Below are positions 28,656 to 32,249 of a stretch of 35,578 nt of DNA, in pieces (the stretch's first letter is position 1; each line of letters starts with the position of its first letter). The DNA is taken from positions 1 through 35,578 of the forward strand of contig JAFTIL010000054.1 of NCBI GenBank assembly GCA_017456905.1, written 5' to 3'. The stretch is from Clostridia bacterium. Its GTDB lineage: Bacteria; Bacillota; Clostridia; Oscillospirales; CAG-272. The notes under the pieces were generated by a model. The model was not told where the DNA came from. It was given only the letters and a program-made list of their open reading frames with translations, and did no database searches. The translations under genes were made by a program, and so were the position numbers.

Positions 28656-29642
28656 TCACAGCTTTTCGGCCACCCTGAGCTTCGCACTTCGGGAACGAGG
28701 ATTGACTGCAAGTTCCTCGTCGCCGGGAAGCACGGGCTTCTTGGTAATGATCTTTACGCGGGGCTTTTTGCCGCACACGCATATAGGTAACGATTTAGGA
28801 CAAGTACAGCCCGATGCCATATCCGCAAAGGTCTGCTTGACGATGCGGTCTTCCAAGGAATGGAAGGTGATGACCGCCATGCGTCCGCCGGGCTTCAAAA
28901 GCTCAAGCGCCGATTCAAGGGCAGGACGGATCACGTCCAGCTCGTGATTGACCTCAATGCGGATCGCCTGAAAGCTTCTCTTGGCGGGGTGGTGACCTCC
29001 CTCGCGGGCGGCCGCAGGAATTGCTTCCTTTATGATAGAAACCAGCGCACCCGTGGTTTCAATGGGGGCGGTTTCTCTCGCTTTGACGATGCGCTGTGCA
29101 ATACGGGGAGCAAATCTCTCTTCGCCGTAATCGTACAGGATGCGTCTCAGCTCTGCTTCGCTGTAGGTATTGACCACATCGTAGGCCGTGAGGGAGGACT
29201 CACTGCTGTGAGGGTCATCAGGATCCTTGGGACGGCTGTCCATTCTCATGTCGAGAGGGGCATCCGCCATGTAAGAAAAGCCACGTTCAGGTGTGTCCAA
29301 CTGGTAAGAAGAAACGCCAAGGTCGGCCAAAAAGCCGTCGATGTGTTTTATTCCCAATTCCCCGCACACGCTGTCAAGCTGTGCGAAATTGCTGTGAACC
29401 ACACAAGCACGCTCTCCGAAAACCGCAAGGCGTTCGGTGGCGACCTTAACAGCCGTCTCGTCCTGGTCGAGGCCGATGAGCCGTCCTGTGGTGAGGCGCT
29501 TAGCAATCTCGGACGAATGGCCCGCGCCTCCGCAGGTCCCGTCCACGTAAATACCCTCTGGCTTGATTGCCAAGCCCTCCATACACTCGTTCAAAAGCAC
29601 CGAGGTGTGGGAGAAGGTAATCTTTTCGTTGTCGTTGATCAT
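28656..29642 (-). CDS. rsmH: 16S rRNA (cytosine1402-N4)-methyltransferase RsmH
   Basis: A 328-residue SAM-dependent enzyme methylating C1402 of 16S rRNA. It shows [13 protein letters not shown], the SAM loop [51 protein letters not shown], and the C-terminal [19 protein letters not shown] and [14 protein letters not shown]. Length is normal (about 310-330). Its ATG overlaps the mraZ stop (ATGA) and it has no strong ribosome site of its own, so translation is probably coupled to mraZ. In many bacteria it is the second gene of the dcw cluster, as here. Confidence 0.98.
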
Positions 29643-30091
29643 AACAGACCAAATTCTTCAAGGTCAGCGCGGAGATCCTCAAGATCCTCCTCGTAATTTG
29701 CCTTGGATGCTTCATAAGCGGCCAGGGACCAGATTTCGGCGTAGTCGCCGCATCCGAGGATGACGATCTCCTTGGCTTCTTTCGTATCTATCCCCGCATA
29801 TTCCATGAGGGGCTTGACGATGGTCGCTCTGCCCTGCCCATCAGCACTCTGAGGGTCGGCGTTGGGGAACAGAAAGCGCTTATATCTGGCCTTCAGGTCA
29901 CCCTTCATCTGGTTGATCGGCTCGGTGTAGACCTTCCAAGCCTCTTCGGAGTAGATCTTGAGAATGGGAGCACGAAAATCTTTTGCGATCACGAAGGAAG
30001 TTCCCAAATACTCCCTCAGCTTCGCGGGAATGAAAAAGCGGCCCTTGGCATCTATGGTATGTCGGTATTCGCCTGTCAACTCGTCGAACAT
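29639..30091 (-). CDS. mraZ: Transcriptional regulator MraZ
   Basis: A 150-residue AbrB-like protein with two SpoVT/AbrB repeats: [27 protein letters not shown] (first) and [25 protein letters not shown] (second), each with the D-x-x-G-R pattern. MraZ binds clustered short direct repeats in front of its own operon and controls dcw expression. The ribosome site AAAGGAGGAG lies before the ATG. It is the first gene of the dcw operon, with a promoter at 30277-30305 and candidate MraZ boxes between that promoter and the gene, plus a remarkable second array upstream. Confidence 0.98.
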
Positions 30092-30212
30092 ATCGCGCTC
30101 CTCCTTTCTCGAAAATTCTTTCCGATTGCTGTCAATAGCTATACTCGTTTTTGATCGGTCGGGTGTGAAAGATTTTGTTCCCGTCGGGGGAACCGATCTG
30201 TGTTTCTTTGCG

Positions 30213-30262
30213 CCATTTCAGTGGTTTTTCCACCACTTTCCCACACATTTGCTCCACTTTCC
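30213..30262 (-). promoter_or_regulatory. Candidate MraZ operator, three boxes at 20-21 bp steps
   Basis: On the - strand GGAAAGTGG occurs at 30254-30262 and 30233-30241, with the variant CTGAAATGG at 30213-30221; box starts are 21 and 20 bp apart. Between them GTGG recurs about every 10 bp (GGTGGTGGAAAGTGG, then GTGTGGGAAAGTGGTGG), the pattern expected of MraZ, which binds repeated GTGG/AAAGTG-type half sites once per helical turn. The boxes lie just downstream of the mraZ promoter, so binding would block transcription: autoregulation is likely. Confidence 0.75.
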
Positions 30263-30276
30263 ACCACCTTGCTCCA

Positions 30277-30305
30277 ATTATACAATAAATAAGCAAAAAA
30301 ATCAA
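30277..30305 (-). promoter_or_regulatory. Sigma-A promoter of mraZ / dcw operon
   Basis: On the - strand TTGATT (30300-30305), 17-base spacer, TATAAT (30277-30282). The expected transcript starts near 30270 with a leader of about 180 bases containing the MraZ boxes. Confidence 0.8.
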
Positions 30306-30471
30306 CAGGTTCTCGGAATGTTTACGAAAAGTTAAAACATTCCCTGTCATACTGCTGTTTTTGGTATTTGTTCAAAAATAATTTGTTTTTATTACGACAT
30401 TTTCGTGCCATTTTTGGTATTTTTCGTTCTTCAAAGCGACAAAAAATGCCACATTTCCTCACAAAAACAAC

Positions 30472-30499
30472 AAAAAAGGCCCTGTTTTTTCAGGGGCGT
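30472..30499 (-). terminator. Leftward terminator upstream of the mraZ promoter
   Basis: On the - strand GCCCCTG-AAAAAA-CAGGGCC (one mismatch) is followed by TTTTTTG. It would stop transcripts that run out of the spoVAF-like gene, about 290 bases past its stop codon and after the box array. An adjacent CGTCA/TGACG hairpin followed by TTTTT (30496-30516) points the other way. Confidence 0.7.
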
Positions 30500-30540
30500 C
30501 AAAAATGACGTTTTTACCCCTGAAAACAGCGGCGTTTTGA

Positions 30541-30740
30541 AGACTTGGGGAGGAAAGTGGGGGAGTTATCGCAAATCCCGGTGAAGAGGGGGGAAAGTGG
30601 TAGAACCAACGATGAGAGGCCTTGGGTATGGTGGAAAGTGGAGCAAAAGACACGCAACAGGTGCGCGGCGGTGTGAAATGGAGAAATAAAGCCGACAAAA
30701 AGCGAGCGTGGAGGAAAGTGGAGGAAGATCACCATTCAAT
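30541..30740 (+). repeat. Five GGAAAGTGG boxes phased at 40-41 bp
   Basis: Boxes on the + strand start at 30552, 30592, 30633, 30673 (variant GTGAAATGG) and 30713, giving steps of 40, 41, 40 and 40 bp. Apart from the box and a purine-rich flank, the 40-bp units share no sequence, so this is not a simple tandem duplication. Several boxes have a second GTGG or GGGG 10 bp before the core, as in MraZ sites. The array fills most of the gap between the spoVAF-like gene and the mraZ promoter and is opposite in orientation to the promoter-proximal boxes. Confidence 0.7.
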
Positions 30741-30785: not shown

Positions 30786-32249
30786 TCAAGAATTCTTCCC
30801 TTTTTGACCGCCTTGTGGGGATCTGTCCTTTCGCACGCGAAAAAATAGAGATTTGAGGGCACGGCCATTGAAGGGGATGAGGGGATACAGATAACTGCGG
30901 GTACCGTTGACCGTCACGTTGGTGAGCAGTAAGATCAAGATAAGAATAAAGCCTCCCGCGTAGCCCCACACGTTAAAGCACGCGGTGAGGATGAGCAAGC
31001 CGATACGCAAGAACTTAAAGGCATAGCCCAGTTCATAGCTTCGTTGGGTGAAATTGGCGATGGCCACGAAGGCCATATAAAGGATGACCTCGGGGATGAG
31101 CCAGCCGATACTGACAGCAAAATCACCGAGAATGAGACCACCCACCACCGACAAAGAATTGGACAGCATACTGGGAGTGTTGAGAGAGGCCATGCGAAGG
31201 CCGTCGATGATAAACTCCGTGAGCAAGAGCTGTGCCAGGATGGGGATGCGCCCCGTCTCGGTGGGGATGATAAAGCTGAGCCAATCGGGAATATAGGCGG
31301 CGTTCATGACCAGGAGGTACCAGGTGGGAGTGAGGAACAGGGTCATCCAGAAGACGATATGCCGCACCACGCGGATATAGGTGCCTGTCAGCGGCGGGAA
31401 ATAGAAATCGTTGGTCTCCTGCATGAAATCGAAAATTGAGGTCGGAAGGATCATGATCTGGGGAGAGTTATCGCAGATGACCAGTACACTTCCCTCCATG
31501 AGCTGAGCTGCGGCGGCATCGGGACGTTCGGTATAGCGGATCTTCGGGAACGGGTTATACCATCGTTTTTTGATCAGCACCTCTGCCAAGGATTCATGGC
31601 CCATGGAGAGGGCGTCTGTATCCACGGTGACCAGTTTCTTCTTGAGCTTGTCCACGTACTCAAGATCTGCTCTGTCGTTCATATAGCAGATCACGATATC
31701 AGTCTTAGAGCTCTTCCCTACGTTCAAGTAGCTCATGGTGAGTGCGGGATTACGGATGCGGCGACGAATGAGGGCGGTATTAAATATGAGGGTCTCCACG
31801 AATCCGTCCCGCGCCCCTCGCATAACCTTATCCCCTTCGGGCTCTCCCGTTTCTCTGGCAGGATATGTCCGAGCGTCAATGATGACGGCCTCGTCTCCAA
31901 AAGCAGACCCCAGCATGAGAGCGGCACCCGAAAGCACCATCTGAACCATAGTATCCACCGAATTGGTCACGTCGGTCTCCACGTAGGGCAAGGCGTTACT
32001 GAGAAAACGCTCGGCAGGACTGCGAGGGTCTCCGTCGCGGAGGGGAAAGTCCAAGCCCTTTTGTGAGAGGAAGTGCATCATGAGCTTTTGCATGACGGTG
32101 TCCTTGATGAAGCCGTCGATAAAATACAGGGTCATCTCGTCCTCACCCACTCTGAGTGTTTTCTTGAGCAGGTCAAAATTTTCGCCTACGCGAAGCAGGT
32201 CATCCATGCGGGTGACGTTTTCACGATAGGAATTTGTGAGCTTGTTCAT
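30786..32249 (-). CDS. GerA-family spore germination protein, SpoVAF-like
   Basis: A 487-residue GerA-family membrane protein. The opening MDDLLRVGENFDLLKKTLRVGEDEMTLYFIDGFIKD is close to SpoVAF as I remember it, rather than to the A subunits of nutrient receptors. A hydrophilic N-terminal half is followed by the family core (VLVICDNSPQIMILPTSIFDFMQETNDFYFPP) and about five membrane helices from residue 290 on, with a basic C-terminal tail. Such proteins sit in the spore inner membrane and act in germination. SpoVAF is usually the last gene of a spoVA operon; here no spoVA gene is next to it, and it takes the place where spoIIIAH would be expected after spoIIIAG. AAGGAGG precedes the ATG. GerKA-type receptor subunit is the alternative. 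Confidence 0.88.
   Translation of the reverse strand: MNKLTNSYRENVTRMDDLLRVGENFDLLKKTLRVGEDEMTLYFIDGFIKDTVMQKLMMHFLSQKGLDFPLRDGDPRSPAERFLSNALPYVETDVTNSVDTMVQMVLSGAALMLGSAFGDEAVIIDARTYPARETGEPEGDKVMRGARDGFVETLIFNTALIRRRIRNPALTMSYLNVGKSSKTDIVICYMNDRADLEYVDKLKKKLVTVDTDALSMGHESLAEVLIKKRWYNPFPKIRYTERPDAAAAQLMEGSVLVICDNSPQIMILPTSIFDFMQETNDFYFPPLTGTYIRVVRHIVFWMTLFLTPTWYLLVMNAAYIPDWLSFIIPTETGRIPILAQLLLTEFIIDGLRMASLNTPSMLSNSLSVVGGLILGDFAVSIGWLIPEVILYMAFVAIANFTQRSYELGYAFKFLRIGLLILTACFNVWGYAGGFILILILLLTNVTVNGTRSYLYPLIPFNGRALKSLFFRVRKDRSPQGGQKGKNS

What the first reader, a model, noticed from the sequence alone, without database searches (positions are those of the whole stretch)
30541..30740. Phased array of five GGAAAGTGG boxes at 40-41 bp, a possible long-range MraZ nucleoprotein site
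Seen: cores at 30552, 30592, 30633, 30673 (variant) and 30713, all on the + strand, with steps of 40, 41, 40, 40 bp. The sequence between boxes is unrelated, so spacing and box are kept without simple duplication, which suggests selection. Known: MraZ, an AbrB-fold ring-forming protein, binds AAAGTG/GTGG-type direct repeats with helical phasing in front of its own operon, usually three or four half sites. Inference: here an extended array, about four helical turns per step, could bind several MraZ rings on one face and loop to the promoter boxes 300 bp away. I know of no described MraZ site of this size.
Basis: partly seen in the sequence, partly recalled or inferred. Interest (0 to 1): 0.8.

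Follow-up and report, generated by a model that had tools for sequence, protein, structure and literature searches.

The report
Remote five-unit MraZ operator array
Upstream of a bacterium's main cell-division and cell-wall operon lie five evenly spaced copies of the DNA site that the operon's own regulator, MraZ, is expected to bind, far from the promoter and pointing the other way, which suggests an unusually large remote control element for cell-division genes.

Summary
The array is real: four exact GGAAAGTGG cores and one variant, steps 40, 41, 40, 40 bp. Each unit is really 20 bp, two 10-bp MraZ half-sites, followed by about 20 bp of unrelated spacer. A motif model trained on promoter-proximal mraZ operators of 49 relatives, window excluded, scores the units 11.8-27.7 bits; the best score elsewhere in the window is 12.8, so unit 2 alone is not above chance. 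In the draft genome all three perfect matches to the two-half-site consensus lie at this locus. Half-sites in relatives step by 10 bp, so a 40-bp period is four MraZ steps. No other genome searched showed the array, but single remote sites recur: 9 of at least 15 bits in 129 other loci, 0.65 expected, all 60-400 bp upstream of the operator. Most likely it is an auxiliary MraZ operator cluster acting on the dcw promoter, probably tightening autorepression by looping or local concentration. MraZ binding is supported by sequence only; looping and sign of effect are inferred. My searches found no description of such an array, but key MraZ papers were not held.

The parts
30547..30566 (+). distal unit 1, two half-sites GGGGAGGAAA GTGGGGGAGT
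   Evidence: 15.6 bits with operator model trained on relatives
30587..30606 (+). distal unit 2, two half-sites AGGGGGGAAA GTGGTAGAAC (weakest)
   Evidence: 11.8 bits; below the best score of 12.8 elsewhere in the window, so it rests on spacing and exact core
30628..30647 (+). distal unit 3, two half-sites ATGGTGGAAA GTGGAGCAAA (strongest)
   Evidence: 27.7 bits; 19 nt identical to proximal operator; 0 mismatches to consensus
30668..30687 (+). distal unit 4 (variant core), GCGGTGTGAA ATGGAGAAAT
   Evidence: 15.1 bits; not among the 12 matches of the consensus pattern with up to 2 mismatches
30708..30727 (+). distal unit 5, GTGGAGGAAA GTGGAGGAAG
   Evidence: 22.8 bits; 0 mismatches to consensus
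30227..30267 (-). promoter-proximal MraZ operator, four half-sites GTGGTGGAAA GTGGAGCAAA(T) GTGTGGGAAA GTGGTGGAAA
   Evidence: 31.1 bits; half-sites at steps 10, 11, 10
30277..30305 (-). mraZ promoter, TTGATT - 17 - TATAAT
   Evidence: consensus scan, 10 of 12 matches
30468..30545 (-). stretch with a strong hairpin and U-tail, probable terminator of the upstream gerA gene, between array and mraZ promoter
   Evidence: RNA fold -29.9 kcal/mol, z -4.44; terminator-like site 30495-30480
29639..30091 (-). mraZ
   Evidence: Pfam PF02381, E 8.3e-21
28656..29642 (-). rsmH (mraW), next gene of the dcw operon
   Evidence: Pfam PF01795, E 1.1e-122
30786..32249 (-). GerA-type spore germination gene, upstream neighbour
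   Evidence: Pfam PF03323, E 1.5e-134; gerA match within 1 kb before mraZ in 15 other distinct loci

Best explanation
The array is a remote auxiliary operator for MraZ. Shown by sequence: five 20-bp units, each a pair of half-sites in the 10-bp register of relatives' mraZ operators, held at a period of four MraZ steps, 299-460 bp upstream of the four-half-site operator that lies just after the mraZ -10 box. Inferred: oligomeric MraZ binds several units, raises its local concentration, and bridges to the promoter operator by looping the roughly 300 bp between them, so that autorepression of the dcw (division and cell wall) operon is tighter and more switch-like. My estimates: MraZ binds the array 0.85; it acts on the dcw promoter by looping or local concentration in a repressing sense 0.5 (lowered from 0.55 on checking, because passages of PMC9395523 indicate that MraZ raises dcw expression in Neisseria elongata).
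For: Model trained on 49 relatives' proximal operators without the window scores the five units 15.6, 11.8, 27.7, 15.1, 22.8. Ten half-sites at 0 and +10 of each unit, all monomer scores at +20 and +30 below zero. Genome-wide, 3 of 3 perfect and 7 of 12 matches with up to 2 mismatches lie in this intergenic region (3 proximal, 4 array). Half-site step is 10 bp in 135 of 138 steps of 9-11 bp. Remote MraZ-like sites recur: outside the window 9 sites of at least 15 bits in 129 loci against a mean of 0.65 (maximum 4) for 300 column-permuted models; all 9 lie 60-400 bp upstream of the operator, none further within the 1 kb examined. Among 83 usable loci not used for training, 5 such sites. One mraZ match in this genome.
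Against: No binding or expression data. No relative examined has the array. Distance and strand of remote sites vary between loci. In the window's own genus 2 of 11 other loci have a remote site of at least 15 bits and 7 of 11 none of at least 11, some of those with short upstream sequence. Unit 2 alone is not above chance. Of the 12 pattern matches 5 lie elsewhere, and the pattern read backwards gives 9 in the genome. Controls are not empty at lower scores: downstream control 4 sites of at least 11 and 2 of at least 13 bits, 0 of at least 15, in 101 kb; model read backwards 3, 3 and 1. MraZ may activate in some bacteria (PMC9395523, passages).
Confidence: 0.5

Rival explanations
1. Decoy: the ten distal half-sites bind MraZ but do not touch the promoter; they titrate MraZ and set the threshold of autoregulation.
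For: Ten distal half-sites against four at the promoter; variable distance and strand of remote sites in relatives.
Against: A titration site need not keep a 40-41 bp period nor lie close to mraZ; all 9 strong remote sites in relatives lie within 400 bp of the operator, though only about 1 kb upstream was searched.
Confidence: 0.17
2. Insulator or roadblock: MraZ bound behind gerA stops transcription running on into the dcw operon, together with the hairpin terminator.
For: The array lies between the gerA stop codon and the probable terminator.
Against: The terminator looks strong by itself; a remote site also occurs in L002, which has no gerA match in its 1 kb upstream; no need for a fixed period.
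Confidence: 0.1
3. Decaying tandem duplication of one remote site, without function beyond one or two units.
For: Absent from relatives examined; the window's gerA match ends further from mraZ (697 bp) than in any of 15 other distinct loci (320-583 bp, only gerA within 1 kb could be seen); unit 2 is weak.
Against: Spacers show no remaining identity (P 0.42) while half-sites and period are kept.
Confidence: 0.1
4. Upstream activation: MraZ on the array raises dcw transcription, as an upstream assembly does for RemA, while the proximal operator gives repression.
For: Passages on N. elongata report dcw genes higher with MraZ than without (PMC9395523); RemA rings bind repeated sites far upstream of promoters and activate (PMC8481266, passages).
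Against: MraZ is described as a repressor in E. coli and M. genitalium (passages of PMC7761207 and PMC8475190); the window's proximal operator lies after the -10 box, a repressing position.
Confidence: 0.08
5. Another factor or a DNA structure (for example a G-quadruplex) uses these G-rich repeats.
For: A paper reports a G-quadruplex in the G-rich region after the S. aureus mraZ promoter (PMC11796246, passages); unit 1 scores 1.68 and unit 2 1.04 on my G4Hunter-style count.
Against: Units 3, 4 and 5 score 0.44-0.64; the full 20-bp motif matches mraZ operators.
Confidence: 0.05

Closest known systems
MraZ operators of dcw operons (MraZ boxes)
   Same: Direct repeats with 10-bp pitch and GTG core next to mraZ; B. 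cenocepacia has four 7-nt repeats with 3-nt spacers after the -10 box (PMC7761207, passages), Mollicutes have AAAGTG[T/G] repeats (PMC8475190, passages).
   Different: Here there is a second cluster, remote, on the other strand, as five pairs at 40-bp period.
Auxiliary operators with DNA looping (lac, gal; recalled, no call)
   Same: Remote extra operators of the same regulator near an operator that overlaps the promoter.
   Different: Five units in phase rather than one or two; looping not shown.
RemA sites in Bacillus (PMC8481266, passages)
   Same: Ring-shaped octamer; at least six periodic 7-bp protected regions with 3-bp intervals, upstream of promoters; DNA wrapping proposed.
   Different: Different protein family, an activator, continuous 10-bp repeats without 20-bp gaps.

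Membership tests
MraZ operator | GTG-containing direct repeats at 10-bp pitch matching the clade's mraZ operators | tested here: met
   Five units recovered by the relatives' model, four above anything else in the window; pitch 10 bp (the model was itself trained on 10-bp pairs, which favours that step)
MraZ operator | Lies by the mraZ gene | tested here: met
   Array 456-636 bp upstream of the mraZ start codon (coordinates)
MraZ operator | Overlaps the promoter or start region | tested here: not met
   Met by 30227-30267; not met by the array, which lies upstream of the promoter
MraZ operator | Three to four adjacent half-sites | tested here: inconclusive
   Two per distal unit. But relatives' proximal operators, counted at 4 bits or more: 1 half-site in 5, 2 in 34, 3 in 30, 4 in 21, 5 in 1 of 91 loci
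MraZ operator | Bound by MraZ | not testable with these tools
   Needs EMSA or footprint
Looping auxiliary operator | Remote site of the same regulator that contacts the promoter operator | not testable with these tools
   Remote sites of the same motif shown; contact not testable

The most novel reading that the evidence does not exclude
MraZ builds an extended nucleoprotein complex on about 180 bp in which each 40-bp unit offers two strong and two non-specific contacts of one ring, and this complex closes a loop onto the dcw promoter as a silencing super-operator. Remote MraZ sites would then be a general, overlooked layer of dcw control in this family.
Probability: 0.25. Interest if true: 0.75.

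Novelty: new variant of a known kind. Interest (0 to 1): 0.52.

Why it matters
MraZ heads the conserved operon for division and wall synthesis in many bacteria, and the sites described in the papers seen here are short and at the promoter. A remote, phased array would show that MraZ can act at a distance and gives a natural substrate, ten half-sites in near-fixed register, for asking how its ring engages DNA. The recurrence of remote sites in relatives makes the idea testable with simple reporters.

Tried and rejected
Coding: steps of 40 and 41 bp break any one reading frame, and no gene is assigned to the array. RNA element: Rfam gave one sub-threshold match (IsrM, 19.8 bits against a gathering score of 376) at 30396-30538 on +, outside the array; taken as chance. 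Genome-wide repeat element: rejected, 14 copies of the 9-mer in 2.7 Mb. Simple tandem repeat: the repeat finder reports no 40-bp array, only a 21-bp period at 30233-30276 and a 10-bp period at 30708-30726, and spacers are unrelated. G-quadruplex: only unit 1 scores high. Divergent promoter in front of the array on +: the only + site found is a 9-of-12 match at 30258-30286, about 260 bp away. Class-wide pattern (293 genomes) was badly designed, as it does not match the window's own array, and proves nothing. One search repeated it correctly: 4 of 195 genomes matched, namely the own genome, a 7-bp simple repeat, one pair in a genome whose stretch fetched (L197) gave no MraZ match better than E 5.2, and one that is the promoter-proximal mraZ operator of another family (L199). 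Family pattern search: 2 of 395, the own genome and a 7-bp simple repeat.

Limits. Upstream loci: 181 (37, 24, 120; the match list was cut, so not every one of its 171 genomes was taken; loci were not checked for family). 12 were dropped (10 duplicates, 2 short), leaving 169; 39 of these had no proximal operator of at least 15 bits and were not used for remote sites, leaving 130 with the window. L160 and L161 come from one genus (G040, G100) and may be one event. L099 carries TTTTCCACA repeats that resemble DnaA boxes (recalled) and is doubtful. A weak extra match of 8.9 bits lies beyond unit 5 and a terminator-like hairpin at 30667-30651 on - lies inside the array; neither was followed. The genome is a draft, completeness 94.66, contamination 8.8; array and mraZ lie on one contig. 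No second strain of this species was available. The 2014 E. coli MraZ paper is not held and papers on the newer MraZ structures in the PDB were not found. 'Not described' rests on searches. Papers seen as passages: PMC7761207, PMC8475190, PMC9395523, PMC11796246, PMC5138195, PMC8481266. PMC9602371 was opened for four terms and gave no passage. All others were seen only in search listings.

Full report
What is there. The window carries the start of a dcw operon on the - strand: mraZ at 29639-30091 and rsmH at 28656-29642, with a GerA-type germination gene upstream at 30786-32249, also on -. The 694-bp interval between gerA and mraZ holds, in the direction of mraZ transcription: the array, a strong hairpin with a U-tail (within 30468-30545, -29.9 kcal/mol, z -4.44), the mraZ promoter (TTGATT-17-TATAAT), and four MraZ half-sites just after the -10 box (30227-30267).

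The observation. GGAAAGTGG at 30552, 30592, 30633 and 30713 is exact and GTGAAATGG at 30673 is the variant; all lie on +. Six of the genome's 14 copies of the 9-mer fall within 490 bp here, four in the array and two in the promoter operator. Given a total of 161 bp and gaps of at least 20 bp, gaps that agree within 1 bp arise in 4 of 95,284 splits. Two simple tests are not impressive: with one mismatch allowed the window has 6 matches against 8.8 expected, and the copy number of the commonest 9-mer is reached in 37 of 20,000 and 114 of 5,000 shuffles. The case rests on exactness, clustering, spacing and the tests below.

What the boxes are. I trained a 20-position model on the promoter-proximal mraZ operators of 49 relatives, leaving the window out. 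Its consensus is GTGGTGCAAAGTGGTGCAAA, two 10-bp half-sites. It scores the five array units 15.6, 11.8, 27.7, 15.1 and 22.8 bits on the + strand and the window's proximal operator 31.1; in the rest of the window, both strands, the best is 12.8. So four units are above anything else in 35 kb and unit 2 is not by score alone. Each unit has half-sites at 0 and +10; the scores at +20 and +30 are all below zero; the remaining 20 bp are unrelated between units (P 0.42). The consensus RTGGNGNAAAGTGGNGNAA has three perfect matches in the genome, all here: one proximal, and units 3 and 5. Of 12 matches with up to two mismatches, 7 are here (three proximal frames and units 1, 2, 3, 5) and 5 elsewhere; the pattern read backwards gives 9. 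Unit 4 is not among the 12.

Spacing. In 169 proximal regions the step between successive half-sites of at least 8 bits is 10 bp in 135 of 138 steps of 9-11 bp; wider steps cluster at 20-21 and 30-32 bp. The model was trained on 10-bp pairs, which favours that step somewhat. A period of 40-41 bp is thus four MraZ steps. It is 3.83 turns of 10.5-bp DNA (arithmetic), so the units do not lie on one face of relaxed DNA; they nearly do in the register of the protein's own sites. This favours a MraZ assembly that imposes its pitch, an inference.

Relatives. No other genome searched showed the array: 2 of 395 family genomes match a pattern of two exact cores, the own genome and a simple repeat, and 4 of 195 genomes of the class match a looser one, none of the other three an array. 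In 169 distinct mraZ upstream regions, most of them of the family, 130 had a proximal operator of at least 15 bits. Outside the window, 129 loci hold 9 remote sites of at least 15 bits (L002, L012, L015, L040, L099, L111, L160, L161, L162) and 16 of at least 13; models with permuted columns give means of 0.65 and 1.78, with maxima 4 and 9 in 300. All 9, and 15 of the 16, lie 60-400 bp upstream of the operator. Among 83 usable loci that took no part in training there are 5 sites of at least 15 bits. Controls on an earlier set of 91 loci: the model read backwards gives 3, 3 and 1 sites at 11, 13 and 15 bits, and 101 kb downstream give 4, 2 and 0; shuffles of the 91 distal regions gave 0.55 expected at 15 bits against 10 seen, 4 of them the window's. 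In the window's genus, 2 of 11 other loci (L002, L012) have a remote site of at least 15 bits, on the same strand as the array; two more (L010, L011) have weaker ones, 11.4 and 14.6 bits, on the other strand; 7 have none of at least 11. Strand is mixed overall. A gerA match lies within 1 kb before mraZ in 15 other distinct loci, ending 320-583 bp before mraZ against 697 in the window, consistent with an array gained in this lineage.

How it may work. Passages describe MraZ as a repressor of its own operon in E. coli and M. genitalium and as an octameric ring in Mollicutes (PMC7761207, PMC8475190), but as raising dcw expression in N. elongata (PMC9395523). The window's MraZ matches the solved MraZ proteins 1n0e, 9qlr, 9qlg and 9sx6. 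The simplest reading is that MraZ rings occupy array units and the promoter operator together, through a loop of about 300 bp, making repression tighter. Titration, read-through blocking, upstream activation and mere decay of a duplication remain possible. Shown: sites, register, recurrence of remote sites. Inferred: binding, looping, sign and size of effect.

Known or new. The half-sites belong to the known kind of MraZ operator. The remote, opposite-strand, five-unit array does not overlap the promoter, unlike the described operators seen here, so I call it a new variant. My ten literature searches listed no paper on remote MraZ sites or MraZ looping that I could recognise from titles, abstracts or passages, but the central E. 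coli paper is not held.

Noticed in passing
mraZ upstream regions L002, L012, L015, L040, L099, L111, L160, L161, L162: Single remote MraZ-like sites of at least 15 bits, 60-400 bp upstream of the promoter operator, recur among relatives; L099 is doubtful and L160/L161 are one genus.
   Followed up: yes
window 30227-30267: The G-rich stretch after the S. aureus mraZ promoter reported as a G-quadruplex (PMC11796246, passages) may be its MraZ boxes, since such boxes are GTGG repeats at that place; not tested on the S. aureus sequence.
   Followed up: no
L099, upstream of mraZ: Many TTTTCCAC(A) repeats on both sides of the mraZ operator, resembling DnaA boxes (recalled) as well as reversed MraZ half-sites.
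   Followed up: partly
window 30206-30221: A further weak resemblance, CTGAAATGGCGCAAAG on the - strand just downstream of the four half-sites, like array unit 4 (read).
   Followed up: no
L199 (genome G411, another family of the class): The same operator motif, GTGGTGCAAAGTGGAGCAAAGTGG, precedes mraZ there, so the motif reaches beyond the family.
   Followed up: partly
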